A stretch of 23,954 nucleotides of DNA, taken from NCBI GenBank assembly GCA_000383735.1, contig KB912168.1, forward strand, positions 1 through 23,954, read 5' to 3'. The notes under the pieces are model-generated. The model was not told where the DNA came from and did no database searches. It saw nothing but the letters and a program-made list of their open reading frames with translations. Origin of the DNA: Verrucomicrobia bacterium SCGC AAA164-M04 (GTDB taxonomy: Bacteria; Verrucomicrobiota; Verrucomicrobiae; Verrucomicrobiales; Akkermansiaceae). The position numbers were made by a program, and so were the translations under genes. Positions 3,495 through 23,567 of this stretch are shown here, piece after piece (within the stretch, counting starts at the first letter, position 1; each line of letters starts with the position of its first letter).

Positions 3495-3509
3495 GAAGGT
3501 TACTTTGAA

Positions 3510-6200
3510 TCAGTCCTCAGGATTCCAGCCGATAAGGGCATCGTATATATTATAGGGACTAGCGTGCTCGCTTGGTTCCCAGTGTCCAACGGGGCAGGGT
3601 TCATCGGGGGGCTCTTCCGAATCAGGTCTTTCGGAAGTTACTTCTAGTTTTCCTTGGTCAATTTGTCGCCTGCGCCACTGGTAAATCTCTTCAAACTCAC
3701 TCCAGCACCGTTGCCAGTCAGGTCCGTTTGAATTGTTTTTGGTTACAACTGGATTGACTCCAGAAAAGAAGTCTTTGTTGCGTGAAAGTAACGTTCCTCC
3801 ATTGCTAAGGATGAAGTAAGCAGTCGCTGGATCGGTTTTTTCATTCTCAAGCATTAGCTTTCCATAAATGGCAAGCTGGAGATGGGTGTTGTTTGCGACC
3901 TCATCGTGACGAGTTGTTTTTCCGCCAAGTTTGAGGTCTACAACCGCGGTATTCTCTGCGTTCTGGCGAGCAATGAGATCAATGATACCTCCGATCTTAT
4001 TAGTCCCGAAAAATGTGATTGGGTCCATTTCTTCCTCCATAGAAATCTCTTCTATTCCTGAATTCTGGAGGATCGTAATCAGTTTCCAAAAAGCTCTTTT
4101 TGCATTGTATACAAGCTGGCCCTTCGCGACCTCAAGCCCCGGCATTAGATAATAAGACGCCTCTGTTCTACACAACTCAGCAAATAGTTCATCGATCTTT
4201 TGATGGAGTATTTTCTCATTTACCGTCCTCCAATCGATACCAGATCCATGATCAAAGATCCTTTCAGCAAGGTGGTGTAAAAGTGATCCTTTGTTTGATG
4301 GGCTTTCTTTTACGCGGTTTCTAAAAATTGGTCCGGGCCTTATATTAGCATGGTAGTCTAAGGCCCAGATATAAGGTGCGTAGACAACTTTATTTAAGGA
4401 TGAAAAAGATTCTATTTTCCTAGATGGAAACAAGTTTCCATCTCGAAAATTCCACCACCTCCGTTTCTTTTGTAAGGGACGTACAGGAATATCTTTACTC
4501 TCTACCTGAATTCCAGTCTCAGCGATGCCTGAGCCTTCAAAGTAAGATTTGATCCGAGTGTGGATGGAGGCCTGTGGGTTTAGTTTGCCGTCTGTTTGTG
4601 CGACATGGTAAATAGTAAGGCTTTTCCTTGCCATTAAGATCGCTCGGGTTGCGATCTCATCTTGCAAAAGCGATGTTTTGTTAACATCGAGAATTTTAAT
4701 CTCTGATTGGTCGAACCATTCTAGTTCTTCTGGAAGCCAGCGGGACGATTGGGGGGGCGATGGTGGAGGACACCACCAAATGATATGATCAGAAGCTTCA
4801 AGTAGTTGTGATGCTGAAGTGACGTGGTTTACTGATCCCACCTCACCATTAAAAGTTATGCCGTTTGAAGCTGACATTAACCAACAGCTTAAAAGATCAT
4901 CTAAATCTTCGAGGGGGGGCAAATTTTTACAATCTAGAGTGGTGACTAGCTCCTGGATACTATGGGCGGCTGATTGCCAAATTTCTGGCTGGGCCGTCGA
5001 TGCTAATTGGGCTTTTTTGCTAACCCAATCGACGAGGGGTTCCAGAGCTATCGTAATTTCACGACCAGTTGGAAGCTCAGGAAGTAGTTGAGAGCGGTCT
5101 AACCAGAGTTCGTAGGAATCTTTTATCCAATTTTGATGATCTGGCTGACATTTCTCAAGAACTCCCGTGAGTGCTTGCTGCCAGTGCTCTCCATAACCTG
5201 GTTTTTTTTGAATGGTATCTGCTAAAGCGTTCCCGAGGATTACTGGGACCGGAGAAGTTGGATGCAGGCAAAACTCTGAGTATGCTTTAGCATCGAGCTT
5301 TGGGCTCCGCATGCGAAGATAGAGCAACACTAATTGAAGGATGCAATCAGAGGAATCATCAACTGCCGAAGGTCTAGGAATATCCTTACGGCGCAGGAAA
5401 TGATTGAGGAGTGCTTGGTTTTTGGTGTTGGCAATGAGCGTCACACCTTCCCTAGGAAGGAATGATAGCTCTGAAGCCAAGGTATGAGCGGCCTTTTCTC
5501 GAGTTGCACAAGTTATTAACTTAACAGTCTGGTCGTATGGCGGCGGGGCAGAGGTTTCATTGAGCAAACTAGCTTGCAAGTATTCCAGAGAAGTTCTTTT
5601 GCTAGAAATGGTCTCTCTTGGGAGGGGATTAGTGAAATCAGAATTTAGCTCAGTGAGTAAATCAACCCAACACCTCGGAAGTAGATCGGGAGGGTCAGTG
5701 ACGGTTATTTTTGCGATTCTTGTCGGGCAGGATCGCAATTCCTTAATAATCGTCTCGATACGCCGAGAAACACACGAGGAGATACCCTGCATTCGACTAA
5801 AAGGAATTTCAACGCGGGCTAAGCTCGCGATACGTTCAGGTTTAGATCTGTCATTCAAGCCATCCCACCCTGCTTCGCGGAGCTCGTCGCGCATTTTTAG
5901 AACAAGTCGTGCAGTCGCAAGTGGGGCTATTTCTATGGATTTAGAATAAAAATCATGCTCGCCTCTGACTTGTTCCATTGCCCTCAAGTAGTCCATGAGG
6001 CGTTGAAGGTAACAGCCTTTTGGGGGAGGTATTCCGAGTGCCGTCTCTAGGTGGCCAAGTAAAGACATTGGGCCGCAAATGATACTACCAGCTTCACGAA
6101 TAGATGCCGGGCTGAAATAGCCATCAAGATGAAGTCCGAAAGAGTAATTTAGCATGAGAAGATCACTTCTGATGGTGAGGAAAAGTTTGGGTGGTGTCAT
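3510..6200 (-). CDS. AddB-like PD-(D/E)XK nuclease, partner of the AddA-like helicase
   Basis: This 896-residue protein resembles the inactivated-helicase/nuclease subunit of AddAB complexes. The N-terminus has a CGPMSLLGHLETALGIP stretch typical of this branch and no Walker A motif, so ATP hydrolysis is unlikely. The C-terminal RecB-like nuclease core is clear: GGIIDLI, then VVDLK (about 753-757) and LQLAIY (about 775). Both subunits of the pair therefore carry an apparently intact nuclease site, which in AddAB would cut one strand each. It precedes the AddA-like gene with a 15-base gap and follows the GYF_2/MshEN gene by 60 bases on the same strand. The ATG at 6200 has no good ribosome binding site, and the ATG at codon 16 (MLNYSFG) is a possible alternative. 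I see no cysteine cluster clearly arranged for an iron-sulfur site at the nuclease ends. Confidence 0.85.
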   Translation of the reverse strand: MTPPKLFLTIRSDLLMLNYSFGLHLDGYFSPASIREAGSIICGPMSLLGHLETALGIPPPKGCYLQRLMDYLRAMEQVRGEHDFYSKSIEIAPLATARLVLKMRDELREAGWDGLNDRSKPERIASLARVEIPFSRMQGISSCVSRRIETIIKELRSCPTRIAKITVTDPPDLLPRCWVDLLTELNSDFTNPLPRETISSKRTSLEYLQASLLNETSAPPPYDQTVKLITCATREKAAHTLASELSFLPREGVTLIANTKNQALLNHFLRRKDIPRPSAVDDSSDCILQLVLLYLRMRSPKLDAKAYSEFCLHPTSPVPVILGNALADTIQKKPGYGEHWQQALTGVLEKCQPDHQNWIKDSYELWLDRSQLLPELPTGREITIALEPLVDWVSKKAQLASTAQPEIWQSAAHSIQELVTTLDCKNLPPLEDLDDLLSCWLMSASNGITFNGEVGSVNHVTSASQLLEASDHIIWWCPPPSPPQSSRWLPEELEWFDQSEIKILDVNKTSLLQDEIATRAILMARKSLTIYHVAQTDGKLNPQASIHTRIKSYFEGSGIAETGIQVESKDIPVRPLQKKRRWWNFRDGNLFPSRKIESFSSLNKVVYAPYIWALDYHANIRPGPIFRNRVKESPSNKGSLLHHLAERIFDHGSGIDWRTVNEKILHQKIDELFAELCRTEASYYLMPGLEVAKGQLVYNAKRAFWKLITILQNSGIEEISMEEEMDPITFFGTNKIGGIIDLIARQNAENTAVVDLKLGGKTTRHDEVANNTHLQLAIYGKLMLENEKTDPATAYFILSNGGTLLSRNKDFFSGVNPVVTKNNSNGPDWQRCWSEFEEIYQWRRRQIDQGKLEVTSERPDSEEPPDEPCPVGHWEPSEHASPYNIYDALIGWNPED

Positions 6201-7561: not shown

Positions 7562-8899
7562 ATGATTAAGGAGATCGTTACCGCTAAAGAATTGGGCGAA
7601 GCAATCGAATACAAGAAACACGGTTCTCTTTTCTTGCGGGCGCTTACTGAATCCCTCTGTTCCATAGAAAGTAGCGAAACTTCGGTAAAGGTGTCGTTCC
7701 TTACATTTGGTGACTTATACTGGCAGCCTTCGGAGGGATGGGCGTTGCACGGTATTGACTTTGAAGGAGAGCCACCGCAGGTAACTAGGTCATTGCGCTC
7801 GGTGCCTGAACTTGAGGCTATGGTTTTTAGTCATATATCCGGTGTGGAGGATATTGGTTCTGGATTTACCGCTACCGTCCGTTATTATTTGAGGCTTTTA
7901 AACGAACTAATAGATAAGCGGCTGAATCAATGTAGGGATGGAACAACGAGCTTTAGTATATTTGATTTAGGCATCTTGGTTATTGATGATGGTCATATGT
8001 CATTTACGCCCTATTCAACTTCCGCAGCTGATAACCCTAGTCAATATGCAAGGGCCATAAAACTAGATGCTTGGGATGGTTTCACCATAGCAAAGGGACG
8101 TTTCTTTAGTGATTTGTCCGCGGATACTTGTTCGCTACTGCTGAAAAAAGTGAGTTCGCGAATTCGTAAAAAACAAGGGGTTGTGGTAGGCCTCGACACG
8201 CGTCCTTTTTGTCTTCCTCCAAATGTAAACTTCCTTGATGAGGAAGCGCTCTCAGTTCTTGCAGGGCATAGGGGTTGTCTCGATATGAGTAGTATTCATA
8301 AATTGGATACAGCCGGGGCAAGGTCGCTGTCAGCATATGAGGGATGCAGTTACGTGGAGGTAAGGAGTAATCCATTTATGCGTCGTTGTGGTTATAGCCT
8401 TGGGGGACTGAGCGAAATATCGGAGGAAGTGGCTGCCGAACTATCTCGGTTTGATGTCAAGAAGCCAGCGTGGGTCACCGAGCTTTGGATGTCTTCCACT
8501 GGTCAATACGACAGAGCCTATATCGTCCACGATTTTTCAGGTTTGAAAATCGTTTCACCAGAGGCTTTGGCTCAACTGGCAAAACTGTCTGGGCATCTCG
8601 ATCTGAGCGGGCTGCGTGAATTCTATAAAGAGCATGCTGAGGCTTTGCATGATCACGTTGGCGGCGTCTTGTTAGATGGGCTTACATCTATGACCCCTGA
8701 TGTTGCGGAAGAGCTGGCTAAGATAAAGCCGGGTCATTATTATGACGATTTTAGACGCACACCTTTGATAAGTCTTGGAGGTCTTGTAAATGCTGATTCG
8801 GAAGTATGCTCAGCACTCTTGGGGTATAAGGGAGGTTTGAATTTAGGAAGCTTTGACAAACTGACTGCTGATTTTGCTGAGCATGTGAAGGATCAATAA
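7562..8899 (+). CDS. Divergent repeat-family protein with unrecognised N-terminal domain
   Basis: This 445-residue protein has an N-terminal half (about 1-200) that I do not recognise; it contains FSIFDLGILVIDDGHMSF. The C-terminal half holds degenerate copies of the 23-residue leucine-rich-like repeat found throughout the window, for example FLDEEALSVLAGHRGCLDM, LDTAGARSLSAYEG, GLSEISEEVAAELSRF and GLTSMTPDVAEELAKIK. They are far more diverged than those of the genes at 12114-15185. No signal peptide or membrane segment is visible, so it is probably cytoplasmic. A purine-rich AAGAGAG touches the ATG. It is transcribed away from the GYF_2/MshEN gene with a 191-base gap, and the next gene follows 37 bases downstream. 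The family assignment by repeats is confident; the role is unknown. Confidence 0.8.
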   Translation: MIKEIVTAKELGEAIEYKKHGSLFLRALTESLCSIESSETSVKVSFLTFGDLYWQPSEGWALHGIDFEGEPPQVTRSLRSVPELEAMVFSHISGVEDIGSGFTATVRYYLRLLNELIDKRLNQCRDGTTSFSIFDLGILVIDDGHMSFTPYSTSAADNPSQYARAIKLDAWDGFTIAKGRFFSDLSADTCSLLLKKVSSRIRKKQGVVVGLDTRPFCLPPNVNFLDEEALSVLAGHRGCLDMSSIHKLDTAGARSLSAYEGCSYVEVRSNPFMRRCGYSLGGLSEISEEVAAELSRFDVKKPAWVTELWMSSTGQYDRAYIVHDFSGLKIVSPEALAQLAKLSGHLDLSGLREFYKEHAEALHDHVGGVLLDGLTSMTPDVAEELAKIKPGHYYDDFRRTPLISLGGLVNADSEVCSALLGYKGGLNLGSFDKLTADFAEHVKDQ

Positions 8900-9737: not shown

Positions 9738-11471
9738 ATGAAGCCGCAACATGTATATATGGTTAAGCACAAGAAAACAGGACTGCTTCTGTCCGGTCAT
9801 GGGCTTCACAGCGAAGGTCAAATCTTCCAAACACCAGCATCAGCAAAAGCCGCCATAACTCGTGGGGCGAACAATATTACAGACCTCGAATCTGGGGAAC
9901 TCGTGGAAAGACGAGATCTAGTGGTTGCGAAATATGAGCTCACCGAGTGCGAGGAAAATTTGAAACTAAAGCCCCAAGGGGACACTGAAATCCCCCCCGA
10001 GGAATTAACCATCAAGGAGATGAAATCCCTTCTCAAGGCTAAGGATGAGGACAGCTTACGACTCGTTTGTGATCACCTTGGCAAGGAGTCTCAAGACGAT
10101 AACCTATGGGGGAAAGTATTTAATAAAACAGCAATATGTCAGCTGCTTGGAACATGGGATGCCAAGGTGTGGGATTTGTTGGCAACCAGCTTCAGCAACG
10201 AAGGCAGGCTGTACACCATCTTGCTGGAGGATGCTACAAAGAGGCTGAACTCGAGCAGTTCCGATATCAACGTGCACAATAGAATCAGTTTCTTCTGTTT
10301 CTCTATCTTATCGGAGGGGAGTGAGAACGCGGCCCAGCTAGTTAAGGAGGCCAAAACTGAAGGAAATTTCCTACGGCTAAATCTTGCCGACATGGGGTAT
10401 CCTGAACCGTCGAACAATGCCGTGGCGACCGCTTTCGACTCTCTTGCCAAGCATGTGGGTAAGCTTGAAATTCGCAATATTACAGATCTTCCTGTTAAGG
10501 CCGCCGAATCACTTTCAAGGCACGAGGGTGCGCTTCACCTCGATCATCTTTACTCACTCTCTGCCGCCGCCGCCGAGGCACTCTCGAAGCATAAGGGAGA
10601 TCTTTTATTAGAGCATCTTGCAAAGTGTTCTGATTCTGTCCTCGAATCTCTTTCGAAACTGGACGGCAAGATAAATGGAAGGCACCCCAAGCAGTGGGTT
10701 GAGTCGGTGAAAAAGGAGATCCTCGAGTATCACACTATAGATACTCAGGCGGCGAAAAAATTCATGGAGGGCTCGGTGGATCTTTCCTACGACTTCATCG
10801 CAATTACAGATGCTGCCGCTGAATTGCTCTCTGAGTTCAAGGGTGATGAACTCGTTCTCGACGGCCTCTCTAAACTCTCTGATGCGGCTGCTAAGTCCCT
10901 TTCCAAGTATCAGGGTGAGCTTTCACTCCGCGGTTTGACCGAGATCTGCTCTCCATCTCTGGCGGCTTCTTTGGTGCGATACTCGGAAGATTTGTCCCTT
11001 GACGGATTGACTAGCCTGTCGCCCGAGATCGCAATGGAGCTCTCACGTCAGAAGTGTGAATCCGAAGGATTTGAGCCCTGCCTTCGCTTAGAAGGCCTAA
11101 CAGAACTTTCGCAGGAAACCACTAAGGTCCTGATGGGGCACTCTGGGCATTTGTCCCTTGGTCTGGAGTCTGTCACGATCGAGCAGGCAAGAATGTTCTT
11201 GGAGTTCAATGGCGAATCCCTGATGCTAACAGACGTTTCCGAAGTCTCTGATGAGGTAGCAGAAATACTGAGCCGGTCGAGTGCCGACGAGATCTGTTTG
11301 GAAGGCTTAGAGTCTCTGAGTCCTGAGGCAGCACAACACCTCCAGAAGCATGAGTGTGTTAAAACTCTGTTTGATCTTGATGCCATTGCGAGTAGCAACG
11401 ACGGTGAGGATGAGGGGGAGATTATTGCCTTTGAAGGCGATGGGCTAACCGTCTCTTACACGACCTCTTGA
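9738..11471 (+). CDS. Two-module repeat protein with unique N-terminal domain
   Basis: This 577-residue protein starts with a unique region of about 240 residues (KKTGLLLSGHGLHSEGQIF; possibly starting at the second Met, residue 8). Repeats follow: VKAAESLSRHEGALHLDHL, AAAAEALSKHKGDLLLEHL. Then comes a sequence that is the C-terminal cap in other members (GKINGRHPKQWVESVKK, about 310-330). Directly after it is an internal N-terminal cap (DTQAAKKFMEGSVDL...ITDAAAELLSEFKG), then a second repeat block to about 545 and an acidic tail. The gene thus looks like two ancestral genes joined end to end. The codons at 10873-10898 are identical in DNA to 14719-14744, showing recent exchange with the gene at 14354. 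A C7 run at 9992-9998 (ProPro) is in frame. No signal peptide or membrane segment; the role is unknown. Confidence 0.82.
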   Translation: MKPQHVYMVKHKKTGLLLSGHGLHSEGQIFQTPASAKAAITRGANNITDLESGELVERRDLVVAKYELTECEENLKLKPQGDTEIPPEELTIKEMKSLLKAKDEDSLRLVCDHLGKESQDDNLWGKVFNKTAICQLLGTWDAKVWDLLATSFSNEGRLYTILLEDATKRLNSSSSDINVHNRISFFCFSILSEGSENAAQLVKEAKTEGNFLRLNLADMGYPEPSNNAVATAFDSLAKHVGKLEIRNITDLPVKAAESLSRHEGALHLDHLYSLSAAAAEALSKHKGDLLLEHLAKCSDSVLESLSKLDGKINGRHPKQWVESVKKEILEYHTIDTQAAKKFMEGSVDLSYDFIAITDAAAELLSEFKGDELVLDGLSKLSDAAAKSLSKYQGELSLRGLTEICSPSLAASLVRYSEDLSLDGLTSLSPEIAMELSRQKCESEGFEPCLRLEGLTELSQETTKVLMGHSGHLSLGLESVTIEQARMFLEFNGESLMLTDVSEVSDEVAEILSRSSADEICLEGLESLSPEAAQHLQKHECVKTLFDLDAIASSNDGEDEGEIIAFEGDGLTVSYTTS

Positions 11472-12113: not shown

Positions 12114-14010
12114 CTACTGAGATAAGTTGGTAACCCATTTAACCCATTTGGCCGGTTTCATCCCATTGATCTTTCCTTTGGGTTTCTGGAGCATTGCCGC
12201 GGCAGCCGCATCAGAAAGTTTGGTAAGGCCAATGTCGAGTTTCCCTTTATGTTTAGAGAGAGATTGAGCCGCCGCATCAGAAAGTTCAGTGATTCCGTCA
12301 AGGGAGAGCGGGCCCTTATGTTTTGCAAGGGCCTCAACAACGGCATCGGAGACTTCTGTTAGGCCATCCAGCCATAATTTTCCACGGCACTTTGCTAGGG
12401 CTACTGCAGCAGTCTCTGAGAGTTCGTTGAGATTGCTCAGGTCAAAATCAGCGTATTTATGTTGTCCGAGTCGCACAGCAGCCCCATTGCTAATTTTTTT
12501 AGCCTGCCCAAGGGAATACATCCAAGATGATCCACGAATCCATTTTTGAGCAAAATCTTCGTCTACATAGTCAGGGCTGCGATCTTGCTCGGAGTCCAAA
12601 TCAATCTCAGCTTTTTTCGCCAAATCATAATCGAGACAACTATCGAAATTTAATAGATTAAGTATCTCGCCAAGCGAACGTGCTCCCTCTCGGCTCAGTT
12701 TCCTAACAATCTTGTCATCAGAATAAAAAGTTAACTCTTTTCCCCTGAACTTTGATAACTCATGCGCACACTCATCACTGAGACTGCTAAAACCACTTAA
12801 TCCCAGCCAACGACCACGAAATCCTGCGAGTGCTCTGGCGAGCTCGCCAGTCATATTTTTTTTACTTATTGTTAATTCAAGAAAATCGACCCCACAAAGC
12901 TTCGTAACTGCAGTCGGCGTTAGTTTTTTTAATCCCCTGAGAAGGAGGCTACCCTTATACTTGCCGATTGACTCCGCAGCCGCATCGGAAAGTTCTTTGA
13001 GGCCGTCGAGGTCGAGGTCCCCCCCCCCGAAACTTGGAGAGAGATTCAGCAGCGGCGTCAGAAAGTTTGGTGAGGCCGCTAAGCAAGATTGTTTTGCCCT
13101 TATACTTGCTAAGTGACTCTGCAGCCGCATCCGAGATTTTAATGAGGCCGTTAAGGGAGATAGTTTCGCTCTCATGCTTGGAGAGAGATTCAGCAGCGGC
13201 GTCAGAGAGCTCCGTCAGACCTTCAAAAATAGCACAGTGACGATTGGATTTTTCAATGAGACCATCGCTCAATGAAGTCATTTCCTGATACTTGGACAAA
13301 GACTCAACGGCGGCGTCGGAGAGTTTCGTCAGACCACCGAGAGAAAGGTTCCACTGATACTTGGAGAGGGACTCAGCAGCAGCGTCGGACAGCTCGGTCA
13401 AACCATTGAGGTTAAGCCCCCCTTTTTGCTTGGAGAAAGACTCAGCGGCGGCGTCAGAGAGCTCCGTCAGACCATTGAGACTAAGCTTTCCTAAAAAGAT
13501 AGGCTTACCGTCCTTTACAAACTGTGCCAAACTGCAATTCAGTGGAGCCTCCGTCAAAAATGTCTCGCTCCCGTGATGCTTAGAGAGAGACTCAGCCGCC
13601 GCATCAGAGAGTTCCGTCAGACCATCGAGGCTAAGAAACCCTTCATACTTAGAGAGAGACTCAGCAGCCGCGTCCGATAGTTCGGTTAGACCGCTTAGGT
13701 TAAGTTCAGTGGGCCAAGTTGATAAGCTTACCAAGCTCGCCCAAGAAGCGGGACCGAAGGGTCCCTGTGACTTGGAGAGTGATTCCGCGGCGGCATCGGA
13801 GAGTTGCGTCAAGCTATTGAGGTGAAGTTCCCCTTCATGCTTGGAAAGAGACTTAGCAGCGGCGTCAGAGAGCTCGATTAAGCCTCCAAGCCAAAGCTTC
13901 CCCTGACCCTTGGAGAGAACTTCAGCAGCATCGTCGGTAATTTTCGTTACCTCCCAAAAATCTACACTACTGTTCAGATCCTTGTTAGCCATTTTTAAAT
14001 CCAAAATCAT
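12114..14010 (-). CDS. Large 23-residue-repeat protein interrupted by a G10 tract (out of frame as given)
   Basis: From the ATG at 14010 the frame runs MILDLKMANKDL (N-terminal cap) and about eleven repeats of the LxLxGLTELSD/AAAESLSKHEG type. It then meets a run of ten G (plus-strand C) at 13019-13028 near residue 328. As given, translation shifts and ends at 12955 (351 residues). With one G fewer, SKFRGGDLDLDGLKELSD restores the frame and the product would be 631 residues: further repeats, an internal cap (EDFAQKWIRGSSWMY), and the C-terminal cap GKINGMKPAKWVKWV at the stop. The total span is 3n+1, consistent with a single extra base. The start aligns with that of the divergent gene at 14354 (MTIDLEMAKKFL). 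Several repeats are nearly identical in DNA, making the gene prone to slippage and recombination. It is probably phase-variable; a plain mutation or assembly error remains possible. Confidence 0.8.
13019..13028 (-). repeat. G10 mononucleotide tract (C10 on the plus strand)
   Basis: Ten C on the plus strand inside the repeat gene 12114-14010. The coding context is AAGTTTC then G10 then ACCTCGACCTCG. Nine (or six) G would keep the repeat in frame as FRGGDLDLDGL, whereas ten gives FRGGGPRPRRP and premature termination. Tracts of this length slip readily during replication. Confidence 0.9.
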
Positions 14011-14353: not shown

Positions 14354-15185
14354 ATGACGATCGACTTAGAAATGGCTAAGAAATTCCTAGAAGATGTGGA
14401 ACTAGATGTATCTGAAGCGAGGGACATTACCGACGAGGCCGCTGAAGTTCTCTCAAAGTGTAAGTGGCAACTTATGCTTTCGGGCCTAACCGAATTAAGT
14501 GATACGTCCGCTGAATCTCTCTCAAAGCATGAAGGATATCTCAGTCTCGACGGCCTAACCGAATTTTCTGACGCGGCAGCTGAATCTCTCTCCAAGCACA
14601 AGGGGTCAAGACTCAGTGGATGTCTCAGTCTCAACGGCCTCTCCAAGCTTTCAGATGCGGCAGCTGAATCTCTCTCCAAGTTTCAGGGGGGGGGACCTCG
14701 TTCTCGATGGCCTCCCCGAACTCTCTGATGCGGCTGCTAAGTCCTTCTCAAAGCATGAAGGATATCTAAGTCTCGACGGCTTAACCGAACTTTCTGATGC
14801 GGCGGCTGAGTCTCTCTCAAAGCATAATGGCCGCCTCGCCCTAGATAGTCTCACCAAAATTTCTGATACAGCCGCCGCGCTCTTATTAGGGCAGGAGAAG
14901 TTGGCGGGGGCATCCGAATCTCTTGCGGAAGAAAATACGGTTGAGCTAGTCACCGAAATAATAGTAGAGCAGCTCAGCATTACCGCTGATAAAGTAAGAC
15001 CCGATTCGAAAATTATTGAGGATCTTGGCGCCGATTTTACTGATGCCGTAGAGCTCGTTATGGGTGTTGAAGAGGAGTTCGGTATCGAGGTCCCCGACGA
15101 AGAAGCCGAGAAGTTTATTAGCGTTAGCGATATTATCTCGTATGTCGAGAAAGCTCTGCTTCGGAACTCGGAATCGAATCAGTAA
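14354..15185 (+). CDS. Repeat protein with C-terminal acyl-carrier-like domain, interrupted by a G9 tract (out of frame as given)
   Basis: From the ATG the frame reads the N-terminal cap (MTIDLEMAKKFLEDVELD... ITDEAAEVLSK) and four 23-residue repeats. At residue 111 a run of nine G (14686-14694) shifts it, ending at 14728 (124 residues). With eight G, SKFQGGDLVLDGLPELSD continues into three more repeats and then an acyl-carrier-protein-like domain of about 75 residues (TEIIVEQLSITADKVRP, DLGADFTDAVELVMGVEEE, FGIEVPDEEAEKF), 276 residues in all. The span is 3n+1, as for one extra base. In true ACPs the motif is DSLD and its serine carries phosphopantetheine; here the residue is Phe (GADFTD), so the modification should be impossible. 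The HU-like gene starts 20 bases downstream, probably in the same operon. In the given frame the ACP-like domain is not made. Confidence 0.82.
14686..14694 (+). repeat. G9 mononucleotide tract
   Basis: Nine G follow AAGTTTCA and precede ACCTCGTTCTCG inside the gene 14354-15185. Eight G give the in-frame repeat FQGGDLVLDGL; nine give FQGGGPRSRWP and a stop at 14728. The position within the repeat unit is the same as that of the G10 tract at 13019-13028 in the divergent gene. Confidence 0.9.
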
Positions 15186-15205: not shown

Positions 15206-15529
15206 ATGGCAAATTTTACAAAGAAAGAGATCACTGAAGAAGTTAGCGATCACCTTGGTGTGACCCACGTTCTCGCATCGCAAATGTTCGAACTGATTTT
15301 GGATATCATTACACGGGAGTTGGCTGCTGCAAATCAGGTGGTTGTTCGCGACTTCGGAACTTTCAAAACAAAAGTCGCTAAGGGGCGTCCAGGAAGAAAC
15401 CCAAAGAACCCAAGTGAAACGATTCCAATTCCTGATAGAGCTCTTGTTAAATTCGTTTCAGGTAAGGCTCTCAGAGAAAAAGTAGCAAGAACTCTTCCAG
15501 AGATTATGTCTAGAGACGGCATCAGTTGA
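15206..15529 (+). CDS. HU/IHF-family DNA-binding protein
   Basis: This 107-residue protein has the complete HU/IHF fold: helical N-terminus (FTKKEITEEVSDHLGV, FELILDIITRELAAANQVVV), the FGTF turn, and the DNA-binding arm with its intercalating proline in GRPGRNPKNPSETIPIPDRA. The C-terminal VKFVSGKALREKV is also typical. The family bends DNA and supports nucleoid structure, recombination and transposition. The ATG at 15206 is preferred because GGGGAG lies eight bases upstream; an upstream TTG at 15191 is less likely. It starts 20 bases after the repeat/ACP-like gene and is followed by the retron RNA. An HU protein between these two is unusual. It may be a specialised architectural partner, or simply a normal HU gene next to an inserted retron. 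Confidence 0.93.
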   Translation: MANFTKKEITEEVSDHLGVTHVLASQMFELILDIITRELAAANQVVVRDFGTFKTKVAKGRPGRNPKNPSETIPIPDRALVKFVSGKALREKVARTLPEIMSRDGIS

Positions 15530-15607: not shown

Positions 15608-15644
15608 GCTTGTTATTGAGGCTGACTATTTTACAGAATTACGC

Positions 15645-15831
15645 AGCTTTCAGACACGTATACGATGGTGGCGTTCCGCCACTAGGAAGACTTGAATGAC
15701 AATAGTCGTTCAATAATACCCGTAACTGACTGTATTATCAACGAGTTACGAGGAGGCCTCCTCGTAACTCAGTTGTATCCTCAGGCAGTTACAGCCATTA
15801 TTGCCTCGCAAGCGTTAAGGAAGTGAAAGCT
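15645..15831 (+). ncRNA. Retron msr-msd non-coding RNA (candidate)
   Basis: The region lies immediately upstream of the retron reverse transcriptase, where msr-msd RNAs are found, and has the expected layout. A candidate a1 (AGCTTTCA, 15645-15652) pairs with a2 (TGAAAGCT, 15824-15831). The msr part has two stem-loops: GTGGCG-TTC-CGCCAC (15668-15682) and a nine-pair stem TTGAATGAC-AATA-GTCGTTCAA with one G-U pair (15692-15713). The msd part is a long hairpin at 15712-15802. The G at 15653, directly after a1, is a plausible branching guanosine. The hairpins are seen directly. The a1/a2 boundaries and branch site are inference; the eight-base pair is short, and the transcript may extend into the hairpin at 15831-15860. 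Confidence 0.7.
15712..15802 (+). other. Long imperfect palindrome forming the msd hairpin
   Basis: The centre is a perfect 28-base palindrome (15743-15770) with arms GAGTTACGAGGAGG. Outside it the arms continue with mismatches: TCAAC/GTTG, then GTAACTG (15722-15728) with CAGTTAC (15786-15792), then AATAAT (15712-15717) with ATTATT (15797-15802). The 91 bases are symmetric about 15757. As RNA or cDNA this is one long hairpin, as expected of the reverse-transcribed msd part of a retron. There is essentially no loop at the tip. Confidence 0.8.
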
Positions 15832-15870
15832 TTGGTGGCCTAGGCGACTAGGCCACCAAAATTATTTTTT
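15831..15870 (+). terminator. Strong GNRA-capped hairpin with T run directly before the RT start
   Basis: TTTGGTGGCCTAG (15831-15843) pairs perfectly with CTAGGCCACCAAA (15848-15860) across a GCGA tetraloop. T6 follows at 15865-15870. The ATG of the reverse transcriptase is at 15875, so the hairpin occupies the place of a ribosome binding site, and none is otherwise seen. It may end the retron RNA, attenuate RT expression, or do both. The T run starts four bases after the stem, so it is not a textbook terminator. Confidence 0.5.
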
Positions 15871-15874
15871 GATT

Positions 15875-16984
15875 ATGGAAGAGATCGCGGAACGACTTGG
15901 GCTAAGTGAAGGCTTTTTGTGGAATGCCTACTCTTTAGCGCGAAGCGGTAGAGGTTATACTATTTTCGAGATTCCGAAGCGCAGTGGAGGCACAAGAAAG
16001 ATCCATAGGCCTTCAGATAAACTTCGATATGTTCAATACTTGATTAAGCGTCGTATTCTCGATCAAGCGCCTCAATCGAAGGAGTGTGTGACTGCCTTTT
16101 GCAAAGGGATTTCTATTCGGGATAACGCTTCTGCACACTGTAATAAGGCAGTCCTTGTTAAGTTCGATTTGAAAGATTTTTTCCCATCTGTTTCATTAGG
16201 AAAAATTGTGCATGTTTTTAAAAGTCTTGGATTTGATGACTGGGATTCACAAGGCTTGGCTTATCTTACAACAATACGTATTGATTCACTTGTAAAATCA
16301 GAGAAGTTTTCTGCCGCTGATCTTTGCTATATCCATTCTAAGCGACTCAAAGAAGTAACCGATTCCTACATCGGGCACTTGAAGAGTGAAGCGTACGATA
16401 AACGTAGAGCAATGGAAGATGGTATCGATTTTGGTGATCTTGGGTGGGAAGCGGATTGTCTTTTAAGTGAGGCTAGAAGACTTGAACAGGATCGGAAGAT
16501 TCTTCCTAAGGCTAAAGTAGTCAGAGGGTTGCCTCAAGGGGCTCCAACATCTCCACAATTGGCAAACCTTGCAGCAAGGCGCTTAGATGCCAGGATACAA
16601 GGCTTAGCTAACCGTTTAGGGTTCAAGTATACGAGATACGCAGATGATCTTACCTTTTCTTCAAGTGACCCACGGGCCAAAACCAATGTGCTGGGCCGGT
16701 TTCTTGAACAGATCATTAGAGATTGTGGTTTTGAGGTGAACTCTTCGAAGACTTCATTCATGCGTGCTCCTGCCACTCGACAAACGACAGGACTAATTGT
16801 TAATGAGGAAAAACCGCGAGTGCGTAGGCATCTAATTCGCAAGGTTCGCGCAATGATTCATCATTATTGTAAAGGTTCTCTTCCTGACGATCAGTTGTTA
16901 AGGCTAAACGGTTATCTATCATTTATCAGAATGATAAATCCAGAACAGTCGGAGAAACTTGAGGCTAGAATGCCCAAGGTCTAG
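15875..16984 (+). CDS. Retron-type reverse transcriptase
   Basis: This protein of about 369 residues carries the retron RT motifs in order: GGTRKIHRP, then DNASAH (the NAxxH signature of region X), FDLKDFFPSV, GLPQGAPTSP, YADDLTFS (catalytic YADD) and QTTGLIVN (a VTG-type region Y motif). The C-terminal thumb (RKVRAMIHHY... LNGYLSFI) is present. It would synthesise msDNA from the RNA encoded just upstream, priming from a 2'-OH. A long segment of about 80 residues lies between FPSV and GLPQG, more than in short retron RTs. The ATG at 15875 is chosen over a TTG at 15869. There is no fused effector domain. The next plus-strand gene (17127) starts 142 bases downstream and is a repeat protein, so the effector is not one of the usual kinds. 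Confidence 0.95.
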   Translation: MEEIAERLGLSEGFLWNAYSLARSGRGYTIFEIPKRSGGTRKIHRPSDKLRYVQYLIKRRILDQAPQSKECVTAFCKGISIRDNASAHCNKAVLVKFDLKDFFPSVSLGKIVHVFKSLGFDDWDSQGLAYLTTIRIDSLVKSEKFSAADLCYIHSKRLKEVTDSYIGHLKSEAYDKRRAMEDGIDFGDLGWEADCLLSEARRLEQDRKILPKAKVVRGLPQGAPTSPQLANLAARRLDARIQGLANRLGFKYTRYADDLTFSSSDPRAKTNVLGRFLEQIIRDCGFEVNSSKTSFMRAPATRQTTGLIVNEEKPRVRRHLIRKVRAMIHHYCKGSLPDDQLLRLNGYLSFIRMINPEQSEKLEARMPKV

Positions 16985-17126: not shown

Positions 17127-18104
17127 ATGAGCATCATCGACGAAGAACTGGCAAAGGCGTTTATAGATGATCCGGATAACGTGGATCTTTCCGAGGCAAC
17201 GGAAATTACGGACGAGGCGGCGGAATTACTCGCAAAGCATGAGGGTGAACTTAACCTCAGTGACTGCAGCCGTATTTCAGAAAAGGCTATTGAAACCCTT
17301 GCTTCAAGAAATGGAGACCTGTCATTGGGAATTAATTCCCTTTCAGACGCCACTGTAGCGGCACTAGCTACCCACGTTGGTAAGTTGGAATTACCCGAAT
17401 TGGAAAAGGTTGGGGACGAAAATGCCGCTGTTCTTTCCACCCATTCTTCAGAGCTCCAAATATCCCAGTGGTCAGAACTGAGCCCCAGTTCGATGGCTGA
17501 AAATAATTATAATTACGAGGAACTCGCGACTGAAGGTGAGAGATTGCTCGCTAAGAAGCTTCACGATAGCGAAATCGCTGTTGATGACAAAATCAGGAAG
17601 ATAAATCAACGGGACATAATTGATGCGAGCATGGCAAAGAAGTTTCTAGATCGTAGCTATCTTGATGGTAGTGGCTCCGAGCAAATCAAGCTTTCAGACA
17701 AAAAGGTGTTAAGTGTCGAAGCCGCTGAGATTTTTTCCAAAATGGATGGAGGGCCTTTGCATTTGGAAGGATTAACTGAAATATCGGATAGAGTAGCCGA
17801 TCTGCTCGGGAAGAGTTCGGGTTTGCTTTATCTTGGCAAATCAGCCTCCTTATCGGCTACGGGATGGAAATCTCTTTCAAGTCACAAGGGGTGGCTCTGC
17901 CTCGAACTGGAGTCCTTGCCGGATGAGGCTGCTTCCGCGTTGAGCCAGTATCAGGGAGACAAGATCTTTCTTGAGGGACTAGTCGAGGTATCAGACTCCG
18001 GAATTAAATCCCTCACAGAATATGGTAAGATTATTGAGTTTGGGAGGAAACGGAAGACGAGTGAAGTTAGAAAAAGGTTTAAATCTCTTAAAGAGGATTT
18101 CTGA
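17127..18104 (+). CDS. Repeat-family protein with frameshifted C-terminus
   Basis: This 325-residue protein has the N-terminal cap (MSIIDEELAKAFIDD... ITDEAAELLAKHEG) and several repeats. A hydrophilic spacer (about 115-165) follows, then a second internal cap (DASMAKKFLDRS) and more repeats (GGPLHLEGLTEISD, SLPDEAASALSQYQG). At 18071-18075 (AAAAA) the frame leaves the repeat pattern and ends in RFKSLKEDF. With one A fewer it would read GLNLLKRISDAVAESLSKAWGV and stop at 18144. That is the expected next repeat, so the present tail looks like the result of a one-base insertion. It lies 142 bases after the retron RT on the same strand and could share its transcript. No signal peptide or membrane segment. 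Function unknown. Confidence 0.78.
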   Translation: MSIIDEELAKAFIDDPDNVDLSEATEITDEAAELLAKHEGELNLSDCSRISEKAIETLASRNGDLSLGINSLSDATVAALATHVGKLELPELEKVGDENAAVLSTHSSELQISQWSELSPSSMAENNYNYEELATEGERLLAKKLHDSEIAVDDKIRKINQRDIIDASMAKKFLDRSYLDGSGSEQIKLSDKKVLSVEAAEIFSKMDGGPLHLEGLTEISDRVADLLGKSSGLLYLGKSASLSATGWKSLSSHKGWLCLELESLPDEAASALSQYQGDKIFLEGLVEVSDSGIKSLTEYGKIIEFGRKRKTSEVRKRFKSLKEDF

Positions 18105-18716: not shown

Positions 18717-20732
18717 TTAACTCTTCCTCATGGAATCCGCCCACTTAGCCGGGTCCTCGCAATTTATTCTTCTCTTATGCTGCGCCAGCGATTGCGCAGC
18801 TGCATCTGACAATTCCGTGAGTGCTTCGAAGTGGAGATCTCCCTTTGCCTTTGCCAGTGTCTGTGCAGAGGCTTCGGTAAGAGTCTTAAGCCCCTTGAGA
18901 GATAGAAACCCCGTTCCCTTGCGTTTTGTAAGAGCTGCAACAGCGGCATCCTCAAGCTCCGACAAGCCATTGAGCGAGAGCGAGCCTACATGTCCAGTGA
19001 GCATGGTTGCGAGATTGGCTGGAAGTGATTTCAAGCTATCTAGAAAAAGTCCACCCCTGTGTTTGGATAGTGATTTCGCGGTGCTTTCGGATAGCTTTTT
19101 AAGGCCGAGCGATAGCGAACTTCTTCCGGGACTGGCTGATAAGAATTCTACACCTGTGTCGGAAATCCGGTTCAACCCCTTGAGCGAAAGCTCCCCCTTG
19201 TGCTTGGCCAGGAATTGCGCCGCAGTATCCGAGAGCTCAGTGATCCCATCAAGGGCAAGGGTTCCTTTGTGTGTGGAAAACACTTTTGCGGTGGTATCCG
19301 AGATTGAGTTTAGGCCGGGTAGTTCCAAACAATCGTCCTTTATCAGGATTTTGGCAGCACCGTCTGTAATGGTCAAGGCGCAGGATATTTTCACGTTTGC
19401 TTTGTGTCCATGTAGGCGCGCGGCTCTCTTGCATTCCATATATGCATTGGCTACATTTTTGTCTATGATTTGCTCGGCTAAGACACGTAGATGAATATTA
19501 GATATGATCGTGGCACGGCTTTCAGTTTCAGCTAAAAAACAATCTGATGTAATATCGAAGTATAATTCCCGCTTATCGAGCAAATTGCTGGCCGCTGTTT
19601 TCGAGAGGAATTCCAGACTTCTAAGATACAGTTCAGATCCGCGGTATTGGGATAAATATTTTGCCGAGGTTTCGGATAGCTCTTCGACCCCGAGGGTCAG
19701 ATGACTTCCCTGATGCTTTGAAAGCATCTCAGCAGATACATCGGAGAGTTCTCTGAGGCCATTCAGAGAAATAGACCCACGGAATCCAGCCAAAGCCTCA
19801 GCTGCTGAGTCAGTAATCATCATAACTTGATCAAGCGAGAGATAATCCTTCGCACATGTTCTGAATCCTTCCGAATCAGCTAGTTTTTTTGCCAGATCGG
19901 TGTTTTGAAGATTTTCGATTCGATACAATTCCAAATCGCCTCTGTGCTCCGCCAGTGCTTCTGCAGCAGACACGGATAAATGCTTCAGTGAACGGAATGA
20001 AAGCCTGCCCGCATGGTTGGACAGATACTTGGCAGCGGTATCGGACAGCTCGGTGAGTCCATCCAGTGCGAGATCTCCCTTGTGCTTGGCAAGCGACTTG
20101 GCTGCCTCATCAGACAGGCTCTTCACACCGTAAAGCGACATTGACCCCCCAGTATTTCCTGTGAGTGCTACCAAAATCTCGTCGGAGGGCGATACAAGGC
20201 AGTCAAGATCAAGACTGCCCTTATGCTGTGAGAGCGCCGAGGCAACCGGTTCGGATATTTCATGTAAGCCAAGCTTCAAATGACCGCTGAACCCTGTCAG
20301 CGATTTTGCTGTGGGCTCGGAGATGTATTGCAAGCCGCTTAAATTTAAATGATCATCACGTTCAACTGCAGACAAGCCCAGTATTTCGGCAGCGTCATCG
20401 TCTATATCTGTGGCTTCAGAGAGCCAAGCATTGCCGCCACTGACATATCGCTCGGCATCTCCTGTTTTAATTACCTGACAGAATGGGAAGTCAACATTCA
20501 GACGCTGCCCTAGTTCCAGGGCTATCTTGACTTTTGCAGTCTGATTGCCCAGCATCCACTCCGCATCGTGTGATAGAGCCGTCAGGCCATCGAGCCAGAG
20601 CTCAATGCCCTGATATTTACTCAAAGCCTCGGCCGCATCGTCGTCAATTGATGTTGCCTCGCGAAGGTTTACACCGCTCTCATCTTTGAGGAACTTCTCA
20701 GCTATTTCCTTGGTAATGTGTCCGGTGCTCAT
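18717..20732 (-). CDS. 671-residue multi-module repeat protein (intact)
   Basis: This is the longest intact member of the repeat family. It begins with an N-terminal cap (ITKEIAEKFLKDESGVNLREATSIDDDAAEALSKYQG). Internal caps appear around residues 85-115 (AWLSEATDIDDDAAEILG), 290-315 (DYLSLDQVMMITDSAAEAL) and 430-460, each followed by several 23-residue units such as DLALDGLTELSDTAAKYLSNHAG. The C-terminus has the standard cap (RRINCEDPAKWADSMRKS). The pattern alternates a short strand (LxLDGL) with a helix (SDxAAxxLxxHxG), as in leucine-rich-repeat solenoids, which usually bind proteins. No signal peptide or membrane segment is seen. The start lies 28 bases after the stop of the voltage-gated channel gene on the same strand, so the two are probably co-transcribed. 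Confidence 0.85.
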   Translation of the reverse strand: MSTGHITKEIAEKFLKDESGVNLREATSIDDDAAEALSKYQGIELWLDGLTALSHDAEWMLGNQTAKVKIALELGQRLNVDFPFCQVIKTGDAERYVSGGNAWLSEATDIDDDAAEILGLSAVERDDHLNLSGLQYISEPTAKSLTGFSGHLKLGLHEISEPVASALSQHKGSLDLDCLVSPSDEILVALTGNTGGSMSLYGVKSLSDEAAKSLAKHKGDLALDGLTELSDTAAKYLSNHAGRLSFRSLKHLSVSAAEALAEHRGDLELYRIENLQNTDLAKKLADSEGFRTCAKDYLSLDQVMMITDSAAEALAGFRGSISLNGLRELSDVSAEMLSKHQGSHLTLGVEELSETSAKYLSQYRGSELYLRSLEFLSKTAASNLLDKRELYFDITSDCFLAETESRATIISNIHLRVLAEQIIDKNVANAYMECKRAARLHGHKANVKISCALTITDGAAKILIKDDCLELPGLNSISDTTAKVFSTHKGTLALDGITELSDTAAQFLAKHKGELSLKGLNRISDTGVEFLSASPGRSSLSLGLKKLSESTAKSLSKHRGGLFLDSLKSLPANLATMLTGHVGSLSLNGLSELEDAAVAALTKRKGTGFLSLKGLKTLTEASAQTLAKAKGDLHFEALTELSDAAAQSLAQHKRRINCEDPAKWADSMRKS

Positions 20733-20760: not shown

Positions 20761-21621
20761 TTACGAATCCCTTTTCAAATCCCTAGCTTTCTCAAGTTGT
20801 GATAAACGAGTAGAGATCTCGTCGAGCTTTCCTAGAATTTCGACCTCCACCTCAGGCTTTTCATCTTTGTCACCCTCGTCTCCTTGATAGTCCTTAACAA
20901 CGGAATCATAATTATTACAAACAGCTCCAACGACCAAGTTAATGAGAAGAAAAGCTGCAATCACATAAAACGAAATAAAGAACGTAGTGATTAGGAATTG
21001 TCCCTGTCCCGACTGGCCGACAAGAAGGTCGTATCGCAAATCAGTCCAATCTTCTCCTGTCAGAACTCGAAACATACTAAACATGGCCTCTAGAACATTA
21101 CCGAATGGATCGCCTGCATTCCCAATACCCGTTATTACCTGACTTTTTCCACGGAACAAAATAACCCCCATTATAGAGTATAAATACATGATGATAATCA
21201 TCAGAAAACAGACCGATGTAAGTGAGGAAATAGAGCGGAAAAGCACTTTGCTGACAATCTGAAGTTCAGGGAAAGCCTTGATGAGCCTGAAGACGCGAAA
21301 GACTCTGAGAATTCGTAAGGAGGTCAGCAGTTCTGGATTCTTAATTGCGTTTTCTGGAACAAAAGCGAGCGCGACTAAAAATACGTCAAAATAATTCCAC
21401 TTATCGCTGAAGTATTCTGAATTATTATTTCTCCCGAACCATCGAACTAAAATTTCAATCAAAAATAGATAGACTATTATTTCTTGAATACGAAGAACTA
21501 GAGGGTCTGGGTAATCGAGTTCGACGCTTATTAGGAGGCAATTTACGACGATCAAGAAAGTGATGAAAAGCGTAAACCATCGTGCACGCGTGATCTGGTG
21601 AAGTGCTGATTTGATATGCAT
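20761..21621 (-). CDS. Single-domain voltage-gated cation channel (NaChBac-like), calcium-type filter
   Basis: This 286-residue protein has six membrane segments and resembles bacterial voltage-gated sodium channels that assemble as tetramers. S1 is at about 14-35, S4 at about 104-120 (SLRILRVFRVFRLIKAF, four arginines and a lysine at three-residue spacing), and S5 at about 135-157. The pore helix with its filter is LTGEDWTDL, and S6 ends LLINLVVGAV. A charged tail ends in a probable coiled coil (ILGKLDEISTRLSQLEKA), typical of the family. NaChBac has TLESWAS; here TGEDWTD carries extra acidic residues like those that make engineered CavAb calcium-selective, and matches the TGEDW of animal Cav domain II. 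Calcium selectivity is inferred from this. The start lies nine bases after the stop of the voltage-sensor/TAXI gene and is part of its operon. Confidence 0.9.
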   Translation of the reverse strand: MHIKSALHQITRARWFTLFITFLIVVNCLLISVELDYPDPLVLRIQEIIVYLFLIEILVRWFGRNNNSEYFSDKWNYFDVFLVALAFVPENAIKNPELLTSLRILRVFRVFRLIKAFPELQIVSKVLFRSISSLTSVCFLMIIIMYLYSIMGVILFRGKSQVITGIGNAGDPFGNVLEAMFSMFRVLTGEDWTDLRYDLLVGQSGQGQFLITTFFISFYVIAAFLLINLVVGAVCNNYDSVVKDYQGDEGDKDEKPEVEVEILGKLDEISTRLSQLEKARDLKRDS

Positions 21622-21630
21622 CTTTATAGC

Positions 21631-23346
21631 CTAAAGTTTTTTATGATGCTGCTTGATTCGATCTAAAGTGATGCCGCAGCCGTTGAGCATATTTTGATAA
21701 ATTACAAATGAAATATTTCCATCGAGTTGCTCATGAACGAGCTCAGCTGTAGCCCTTCGTCTAATGTCGAAAAGCTGTGATTCTATTTTTTCGAGTTCGG
21801 TTTCTGATCGTGATTCGTTTAGCTCCGTCATGACTCCGCATAGCTCGAGGTAATAAATATCAATACGATTCTTTCTTCTCTGTGAAAGCCATGTTTTCAC
21901 CCATCCACCCCCACTCCAAAGAAGTAAAATCACCGTAAGGATAAAGCCCATCACTTCCGCATGTGCGACCAAGAAACCAGGCTCCCGGCGAAGATAAAAA
22001 TCCTCAGCGCCCTCGTGCAAAGGATAGTGGAGACCCACCGTTGCAGTGCTTTCATCAAGGTTTGAAAATAAAACCTCTTCGCTTGAAAGTTGAGCACGTC
22101 TCGTAAAAAGAGCTTTGGTCAGACGATGAACAATTTCACTATCTAAGTCTGCGTTGCAAGCAAGGATTGCAGCAACGCTAAGAGATGGAGATGGGGTTTT
22201 AGGACGTCCCTCGTAAGCCATTTGAGGAATTACGTTTGCCTTAAGATATGGGTAATGAACATTGATCCCACTCGCGAATTTTTGAGCTTGTCTCGACGGG
22301 TCACTTTCAGTCTCAGAGAGTTGAATCGCTGTTAACTTTAGTTCCGGATTGAGTAAACCACTCGTTACAACATCGGAGCCAAGGCCCGAGAGAAAGAAGG
22401 CGGCGTCGATCTCTTTGTTGTCTAAGCTTTCGATCGCCTTTGATGGTGATAGAAAAAAGGTGTTTCCAGTTGATATTCTGATCTTCGAAAATTTAAGAAC
22501 TTCTTCAACGACTTGTTTTGTGCCGCTATCGATTGTTCCCAAATTAACGCGTTTGTTTTTGAGGCCTTGAAGGTTATCGATATTCAATTCAGACCTTGTG
22601 ATAAGATGAAGGATTTCAGGATACACTGATGCAATACTAAAAACCTCTTTGCCGGTCGTGCAGTCATTTTGAATCCAAGCGATGTGAGCCTTTTTGTCTT
22701 CTAGGTTTCTGATGTTTTCATTACTTCCGTTGCTTGCTTTTAGCTCGATCAGAAGATCATCGTGCTCGCTTTCTAAAGCTTGTTTTATTTTTTCAGCCAT
22801 TTGGTAGTACTTCCCACCCTTTGACCCCGTAGAAAAAATAATAGTGGTTTTTTCAGGGGTGCGTAGGAGATGCCATGCAAAGCCACTTGCAGAGAGAGTG
22901 AGGACAATCACGACAGCTGACCGAAGCGCCCCTATTTCGGAGCAATACTTGAATAGATGTGTGAGTTTAAGAATTCGAAGCACTCGGAGTAACAAAAGAA
23001 ATTCTAGCTCGATGCCCGGTATTAGAGATAGATATGCTGGGACGATAGCCAGTAGATCAATGATCCCAAATAAGCTCCACAAATAGTCGCGATATGAATG
23101 AGAGGTCCATAGCCGGATTAAGTATTCGACTGTGAAGAAAATAATGAAGAACCACTCAATACGGATTAAATAGGTTTTCCAGCGAGCCATCCCTGGATCC
23201 ATAGCTAACACTAAGAAAATGATGCTTAAAATAATGGAGGTAATTATTGCTACGTCAAAAAGCCTCCCAGCTAATGAATCTTTTCCATTAATTATCTTTC
23301 GAGTAGAAACACGCAGGGAGCTCATACGTTCGGCGATACCGTTCAT
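21631..23346 (-). CDS. Kv-type voltage-sensor domain fused to TAXI-family solute-binding domain
   Basis: This 571-residue protein opens with four membrane segments of a Kv-type voltage sensor: S1 about 27-47, S2 with FFTVEYLIRLW about 66-80, S3 with FGIIDLLAIVPAYL about 92-108, and S4 LLLLRVLRILKLTHLFKY about 117-134. One more hydrophobic segment follows (VVIVLTLSASGFAWHLL, about 145-161). A potassium pore would follow in a channel, but no TVGYG filter exists. Instead residues about 167-460 are a TAXI-type periplasmic binding protein (IIFSTGSKGGKYYQMAEKI, NLGTIDSGTKQVVEEVL). A final membrane helix (VMGFILTVILLLWSGGG) and a cytoplasmic tail of about 80 residues end the protein. TAXI proteins bind organic acids for TRAP transporters or signal ligands. 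It heads the operon with the channel nine bases downstream. No TRAP permease is present. Voltage- or ligand-sensing is inference. Confidence 0.85.
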   Translation of the reverse strand: MNGIAERMSSLRVSTRKIINGKDSLAGRLFDVAIITSIILSIIFLVLAMDPGMARWKTYLIRIEWFFIIFFTVEYLIRLWTSHSYRDYLWSLFGIIDLLAIVPAYLSLIPGIELEFLLLLRVLRILKLTHLFKYCSEIGALRSAVVIVLTLSASGFAWHLLRTPEKTTIIFSTGSKGGKYYQMAEKIKQALESEHDDLLIELKASNGSNENIRNLEDKKAHIAWIQNDCTTGKEVFSIASVYPEILHLITRSELNIDNLQGLKNKRVNLGTIDSGTKQVVEEVLKFSKIRISTGNTFFLSPSKAIESLDNKEIDAAFFLSGLGSDVVTSGLLNPELKLTAIQLSETESDPSRQAQKFASGINVHYPYLKANVIPQMAYEGRPKTPSPSLSVAAILACNADLDSEIVHRLTKALFTRRAQLSSEEVLFSNLDESTATVGLHYPLHEGAEDFYLRREPGFLVAHAEVMGFILTVILLLWSGGGWVKTWLSQRRKNRIDIYYLELCGVMTELNESRSETELEKIESQLFDIRRRATAELVHEQLDGNISFVIYQNMLNGCGITLDRIKQHHKKL

Positions 23347-23567
23347 GGGGTAGTCGTAAAGCTTCTTACAGATTTTCGTAAAGATAAAACTCTCACCGAT
23401 ACAAGGTTAGGAAATCATTTTAAAAGCGTTTTTAACTAGAGTTGTTTCAAGGATTTCCTTGAAATTTATTTTTTTATTGAAGCTCTTGAGGTTTGAACTC
23501 GTGGCCGCCGCCAAAGAAAATGGTCCATGTTGAGTGAGAGGATTTGGTGAAATCCAAATCCTAAGAA

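What the first reader, a model, noticed from the sequence alone, without database searches (positions are those of the whole stretch)
14686..14694. A second, independent G9 tract at the same repeat position switches an ACP-like domain off
In the divergent gene 14354-15185, nine G replace the eight that keep the frame. The tract follows SKFQ and precedes DLVLDGL, the same point of the repeat unit as the G10 tract. Two genes, each exactly one base too long at the equivalent site, suggest either coordinated phase-variable design or a repeat cassette carrying the tract spread by gene conversion. In the OFF state the C-terminal ACP-like domain is lost.
Basis: partly seen in the sequence, partly recalled or inferred. 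Interest (0 to 1): 0.8.

Follow-up and report, generated by a model that had tools for sequence, protein, structure and literature searches.

The report
Hypermutable G-run in repeat-protein gene
A gene of an uncultured bacterium carries a run of nine identical letters that throws its reading frame off, while a nearly identical copy elsewhere reads through, which fits the well-known on/off switching of genes by slippery letter runs but could also be a sequencing slip.

Summary
A G9 run lies at 14686-14694 and a C10 run (G10 on the minus strand) at 13019-13028, the only G/C runs of 8 or more in the window. Both sit at the same loop of a ~23-residue repeat unit in two divergent neighbouring genes. 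In both, one frame is open before the run and the +1 frame after it to the end, with no other lesion. Protein P0001 is a natural uninterrupted copy of gene B: 113/113 identical before the run, 162/167 after. G9/G10 fall in the published hypermutable class (>7G; PMC4235727, passage). B is most likely a slipped-strand ON/OFF locus recorded OFF; a homopolymer sequencing slip is the main rival. Coordination is unsupported; a shared cassette is weakly supported. The run is not a family trait: none of 41 relatives' loci has a G/C run of 8 or more. The lost "ACP" domain has Phe where the phosphopantetheine Ser should be, so it is not a working carrier. A new target of a known kind of switch.

The parts
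14354..14728 (+). Gene B as recorded (OFF reading): 124 aa, first repeat units, ends GGGPRSRWPPRTL-stop
   Evidence: 113/113 identical to P0001 up to the run
14686..14694 (+). G9 tract, the proposed slippage site of gene B
14695..15185 (+). Remainder of gene B in frame +1: further repeat units and the ACP-like domain (mechanical ORF 14616-15185)
14931..15155 (+). Degenerate acyl-carrier-protein domain; DFTD in place of DSLD, so no phosphopantetheine serine
12114..14010 (-). Gene A, divergent paralog made of the same repeat units, also frame-broken at its own run
13019..13028 (-). G10 tract (C10 on + strand) of gene A
10830..10942 (+). Another F-type repeat unit (SEFKGDELVLDGL) in gene 9738-11471, same loop length, no run; its sequence after the loop is the closest to B's among the four F-type units compared
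15206..15529 (+). IHF/HU-type gene, 477 nt beyond B's premature stop; context
15869..16984 (+). Retron-type reverse transcriptase downstream; context, no shown link

Best explanation
Gene B encodes a protein of leucine-rich-repeat-like units with a non-functional ACP module at the end. One unit's five-residue loop (F-Q-G-G-D) is written as an uninterrupted G run long enough to slip during replication (slipped-strand mispairing). Gains or losses that are not multiples of three swap the full product (276 residues in P0001) for a 124-residue stump without the last repeats and the ACP module; further slippage reverses it. The window records an OFF allele, P0001 an ON allele. Gene A next door is a second, independent locus of the same sort. 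Shown: the runs, the frames, an intact natural copy of B. Inferred: that slippage in cells and not sequencing made the difference, that it is reversible, and any benefit.
For: The only two long G/C runs in the window sit exactly where the frame breaks, while the runs of 7 at 4751, 4913, 7109 and 9992 lie inside ORFs that stay open. The downstream frames carry no further lesion, so the breaks are recent or reversible. P0001, an uninterrupted copy from an ENA contig (cluster of 5 member sequences, 1 contig listed), is 113/113 before and 162/167 after the run. Published classes give >7G as hypermutable, 1e-5 to 1e-2 mutations per division (PMC4235727, passages). Akkermansia muciniphila, a probable family mate (the window's family is inferred from its ACP), has G8 and C10 tracts in two capsule-related genes and its authors suggest phase variation (PMC3048395, section 5 and passages).
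Against: No reads, no population data and no DNA of P0001: only its protein is seen, so its tract length is unknown. No near-identical OFF copy among the 120 listed of 260 hits. No long run at this place in relatives: 0 G/C runs of 8 or more in 41 loci; the pattern for 7 or more G found one repeat gene, a G7 in frame, in 260 family genomes, and the pattern's hits do not exceed its backward control (5 against 7, 8 against 13, 34 against 47 for the looser pattern). By eye the N-terminus shows no export signal, unlike typical phase-variable targets; no signal predictor was run. Poly-G/C runs of 8 or more are error-prone in Illumina data (PMC4235727, passage).
Confidence: 0.55

Rival explanations
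1. Homopolymer sequencing or assembly error: the true runs are in frame and both genes are intact.
For: Both breaks fall at the longest G/C runs only, and an intact copy P0001 exists; published error problem for poly-G/C of 8 or more in Illumina assemblies (PMC4235727, passage).
Against: The four G/C runs of 7 and an A8 in gene A's second part sit in open frames; the runs are abnormally long whatever the exact count. Platform and coverage of the window are unknown.
Confidence: 0.27
2. Plain frameshift decay: dispensable repeat genes caught in early, fixed inactivation, with the run merely the mutational hot spot and no adaptive switching.
For: The repeat is patchy (15 of 260 family genomes); the ACP module already lacks its serine; the run is not conserved.
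Against: No other stop or frame lesion in 1,897 and 832 nt; a near-identical intact copy exists. All 4 true substitutions lie after the run, but 0/113 against 4/163 is not significant (Fisher p 0.15).
Confidence: 0.14
3. Recoding: ribosomal or RNA-polymerase slippage on the run makes some full-length product from the recorded allele.
For: Homopolymer runs are a known slippage site for polymerases (PMC3711429, passages).
Against: A -1 ribosomal shift would enter frame 2, which has 10 stops after the run in B and 15 in A; only a +1 or -2 shift reaches the open frame. The passage on polymerase slippage names runs of A or T, not G.
Confidence: 0.04

Closest known systems
Poly-G/poly-C contingency loci of Campylobacter jejuni (29 tracts of 7 or more in NCTC11168; PMC4965091, abstract and passages)
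   Same: Run of G in the coding part, overlapping length range (G8-G11 discussed there), ON/OFF by frame, many loci in one genome
   Different: Those genes mostly modify surface structures (passage); here a repeat protein with no export signal seen by eye; rates unmeasured here
Mononucleotide tracts suggested for phase variation in Akkermansia muciniphila (PMC3048395, section 5 and passages)
   Same: Probably the same bacterial family; G8 and C10 tracts in genes
   Different: Capsule-biosynthesis and acyltransferase genes there, a repeat-ACP gene here; a suggestion from sequence in both cases, as far as I read
Acyl carrier protein AcpP (TIGR00517, PF00550)
   Same: C-terminal 75 residues, up to 83% identical to AcpP of an Akkermansiaceae MAG
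   Different: Attachment serine replaced by Phe; fused to repeats
Leucine-rich repeats, cysteine-containing type (recalled resemblance: LxLxGLxxLSDAAAESLSKH)
   Same: LxLxxLxxL strand followed by a helix-like stretch, about 23 residues
   Different: No Pfam LRR model among the matches; no structure could be predicted

Membership tests
Slipped-strand (simple-sequence-repeat) phase-variable gene | Repeat tract in the hypermutable length range inside the reading frame or promoter | tested here: met
   G9 and G10 inside the coding parts; class >7G (PMC4235727, passage)
Slipped-strand (simple-sequence-repeat) phase-variable gene | Length change switches expression or product | tested here: met
   By reading frame only: 124 aa against the 276 aa of P0001; expression not measured
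Slipped-strand (simple-sequence-repeat) phase-variable gene | More than one state found among close relatives or in one population | tested here: inconclusive
   Window OFF, P0001 ON; a sequencing slip cannot be excluded
Slipped-strand (simple-sequence-repeat) phase-variable gene | Reversible switching at high rate | not testable with these tools
   Needs reads, colonies or reporters
Functional acyl carrier protein | Sequence match to the family | tested here: met
   PF00550 31.7 bits over cut-off 20.8; TIGR00517 86.2 over 70.45
Functional acyl carrier protein | Phosphopantetheine-attachment serine in the DSL motif | tested here: not met
   DFT aligned to DSL of 2ehs and 8jfn; AcpP of five relatives' loci reads DSLDAVELV; P0001 also has DFT
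Coordinated pair of switches | States of A and B vary together | not testable with these tools
   One allele of A only; best identity 57% among the 120 listed of 960 hits, and an intact A (about 631 aa) is above that search's length limit (about 614)

The most novel reading that the evidence does not exclude
Two divergent, independently slipping repeat genes form a four-state contingency module beside a retron, and the state of B, through polarity over the 477 nucleotides between its premature stop and the next gene, also tunes the downstream IHF/HU gene and retron.
Probability: 0.07. Interest if true: 0.65.

Novelty: new member of a known kind. Interest (0 to 1): 0.36.

Why it matters
If tract lengths are mixed in the population, it shows poly-G contingency switching in uncultured Verrucomicrobiota-like bacteria acting on repeat proteins that do not look like surface structures, and suggests that these little-known proteins face fluctuating selection, for instance from phages or competitors (inference). 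If it is a sequencing slip, it is a warning for gene calls in such contigs.

Tried and rejected
Rejected: (1) 'Only two SKF units, both with runs' as proof of common origin (figure printed): one search shows another SKF unit at 12755 in gene A without a run, so the figure was dropped. (2) In-frame slippage by three as a general habit of the family: of 153 five-residue loops that my pattern recognised (288 of 325 fetched proteins had recognised units) 28 are xxGGx, 18%, against Gly at the last position in 71 of 673 four-residue loops, 11%; I do not count that as a clear excess. (3) P0094, ending SKHKGGGDACHPNF, as a second OFF copy: by my own hand reading of possible codons, not a tool, its tail does not fit the repeat in the other frames. 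(4) G149:C343:88308, AAGTTTC followed by G13, is not in a repeat gene; the pattern hits in G222, G249 (three), G336, G288 and G379 show no repeats in the translations printed. (5) Retron as partner of the repeat genes: of 26 places in 23 of 260 genomes I looked only at the best (G178, 55%); its 4 kb locus has no repeat ORF. PADLOC gave only two weak matches for six repeat proteins (Csm6 E 0.012, PDC-M03B E 0.049). (6) Viral contigs: no relative in two scans. (7) Plasmids: 150 records match, all under 60% identity and none with one place covering 80% of P0001; 8 listed. (8) Structure prediction could not be had, so the fold of the repeats is untested. (9) The census of 124 units can see only units that are in frame, and missed the window's own two run-bearing units in the same kind of scan; one search repeats it without regard to frame.

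Literature searches: (listings; searches returned no paper). None of the listed titles or abstract openings names a phase-variable repeat-ACP or leucine-rich-repeat gene with a poly-G tract.

Full report
What is there. The window (46% G+C) holds six genes of a repeat family between 7562 and 20732: 7562-8899, 9738-11471, 12114-14010 (gene A, minus), 14354-15185 (gene B, plus), 17127-18104 and 18717-20732 (minus). The unit is about 23 residues, LxLxGLxxLSDAAAESLSKHxG. No Pfam model reached its cut-off on the repeats; the likeness to leucine-rich repeats is recalled, and no structure could be predicted. The G9 and C10 runs are as described and are the only G or C runs of 8 or more.

Frame. In B, frame 0 is free of stops up to the run and ends 11 residues after the GG; frame 1 is open from the run to the natural stop at 15185. 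In A the same holds, with the natural stop at 12114. No other lesion is present in either gene. Frame 2, which a -1 ribosomal shift would reach, has 10 stops after the run in B and 15 in A, so a -1 shift would not yield the ACP part.

An intact copy. A search of the protein collection with the post-run ORF gave 727 hits among 2494 candidates, 120 listed; the best, P0001, is 276 aa long (ENA source, cluster of 5 member sequences, 1 contig listed, longest 3,418 nt) and reads straight through SKFQGGDLVLDGL. It is 113/113 identical to the window before the run and 162/167 after it; one of the five differences is the residue at the run's edge read in the other frame, so four are real, all in the ACP module or tail. 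The excess after the run is not significant (0/113 against 4/163, Fisher p 0.15). I have not seen P0001's DNA or its members one by one. A search with the 124-aa OFF reading (340 candidates, 260 hits, 120 listed) lists no near-identical OFF copy; the highest identity listed is 72%.

Is the run a family habit? No. In the family of G001 (an Akkermansiaceae MAG by its record title) 15 of 260 genomes have a match to B's first part. Among 124 distinct units that my pattern recognised in loci from those genomes and two Planctomycete loci, the longest G run in the loop is 5 or less in 123 and 7 in one, in frame. That pattern cannot see frame-broken units, so I repeated the scan without regard to frame: none of 41 such loci (214 kb, overlaps counted apart, 32 of them with at least three unit anchors) has a G/C run of 8 or more, while the window gives exactly its two. 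Whole-genome patterns agree: at least 7 G at this place gave 5 places in 3 of 260 family genomes, one of them a repeat gene (the G7 of G141), and 7 places for the backward control; 8 places in 6 of 386 genomes of the order, with no further repeat gene, and 13 for the control (the two genome sets overlap); a looser pattern gave 34 places against 47 for its control in 17 genomes. So the long runs belong to this lineage as far as was searched. Synonymous recoding with local codon use makes such runs in 2.9% and 1.8% of draws: unusual, but reachable by codon choice.

Origin of the pair. The 60 nt before the two runs match at 48/60; over 351 pairs of 27 recognised units the mean is 34.2, the 95th percentile 45, the 99th 49 and the maximum 52. 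The 60 nt after the runs match at 44/60, while B matches the unit at 10830 at 52/60 there; for that side I computed no background. B's tract unit thus looks mosaic: modest support for exchange of repeat units, none for one cassette copied whole. Four F-type units (13038, 14675, 10830, 12755) all have a five-residue loop in the repeat's frame; two of the four carry runs.

The ACP module. NCBIfam TIGR00517 matches above its cut-off (86.2 against 70.45) and the module is up to 83% identical to AcpP of an Akkermansiaceae MAG, so it was probably copied from the housekeeping gene of this group (inference). AcpP of five of those loci reads GADSLDAVELV; B and P0001 read GADFTDAVELV, and the two PDB alignments printed place Phe at the serine. 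That this serine carries phosphopantetheine is established knowledge. So the module cannot carry an acyl group in the usual way; it may be a docking module, or decaying. Losing it in the OFF state is therefore not loss of a carrier function.

Mechanism. Slipped-strand mispairing at a run of this length is the plain explanation: published classes give 6-8G as mutable and >7G as hypermutable, 1e-5 to 1e-2 per division (PMC4235727, passages). In C. jejuni, slippage products rise 2.5-fold from G8 to G11, although the abstract also says that PCR over-estimates the true switching by 20-35-fold (PMC4965091, abstract). The review warns that Illumina data are error-prone in poly-C/poly-G of 8 or more (22 of 31 tracts at contig ends in one data set). 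The window's platform is unknown. I put slippage in cells at 0.55 and a sequencing slip at 0.27. For coordination, two runs both at +1 has chance 1/9 if registers are equally likely, or 1/4 given that both are out of frame; it needs no design.

Known or new. Poly-G contingency loci are a known kind; Akkermansia muciniphila was reported with G8 and C10 tracts and a suggestion of phase variation (PMC3048395, section 5 read in full, other passages). What is new, as far as the searches show, is the target: a repeat protein with a serine-less ACP module, next to a second such gene, upstream of an IHF/HU-type gene and a retron-type reverse transcriptase. Whether B's state affects those by polarity is untested.

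Noticed in passing
15640-16984 (+): Retron-type reverse transcriptase (PADLOC RT_XIII E 3.2e-86; NCBIfam retron_St85_RT 238.3 bits against 235) preceded by a strongly folding stretch 15640-15870 (z -9.2), a candidate retron RNA; no Rfam match at gathering threshold in the window.
   Followed up: partly
14931-15155 (+): ACP module with DFTD in place of DSLD: an apparently captured acyl carrier protein without its attachment serine, in the window and in P0001.
   Followed up: yes
1-232 and 23502-23733: Perfect 232-nt inverted repeat at or near the two ends of the window, overlapping a transposase-like ORF (23568-23840, +; IS3-type by recall): probable copies of an insertion element.
   Followed up: no
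21631-23346 (-): TAXI-type TRAP transporter solute-binding domain (TIGR02122, 147 bits) joined to an N-terminal part with a weak channel match (E 0.00066, far below cut-off), next to a second gene with a weak channel match, 20761-21621.
   Followed up: no
L133 (G149:C343:78001-90529), 10308-10327: AAGTTTC followed by a G13 run in an unrelated genome, at the start of a short ORF that resembles a GYF-type protein by recall; another possible slippage site, not in a repeat gene.
   Followed up: no
252-6200 (-): AddA-like gene and, by position and look compared with the neighbours of AddA in L101 and L102, a probable AddB-like gene. AddA is at most 51% identical to its best matches among 260 family genomes, so the host genus seems unrepresented there.
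   Followed up: partly
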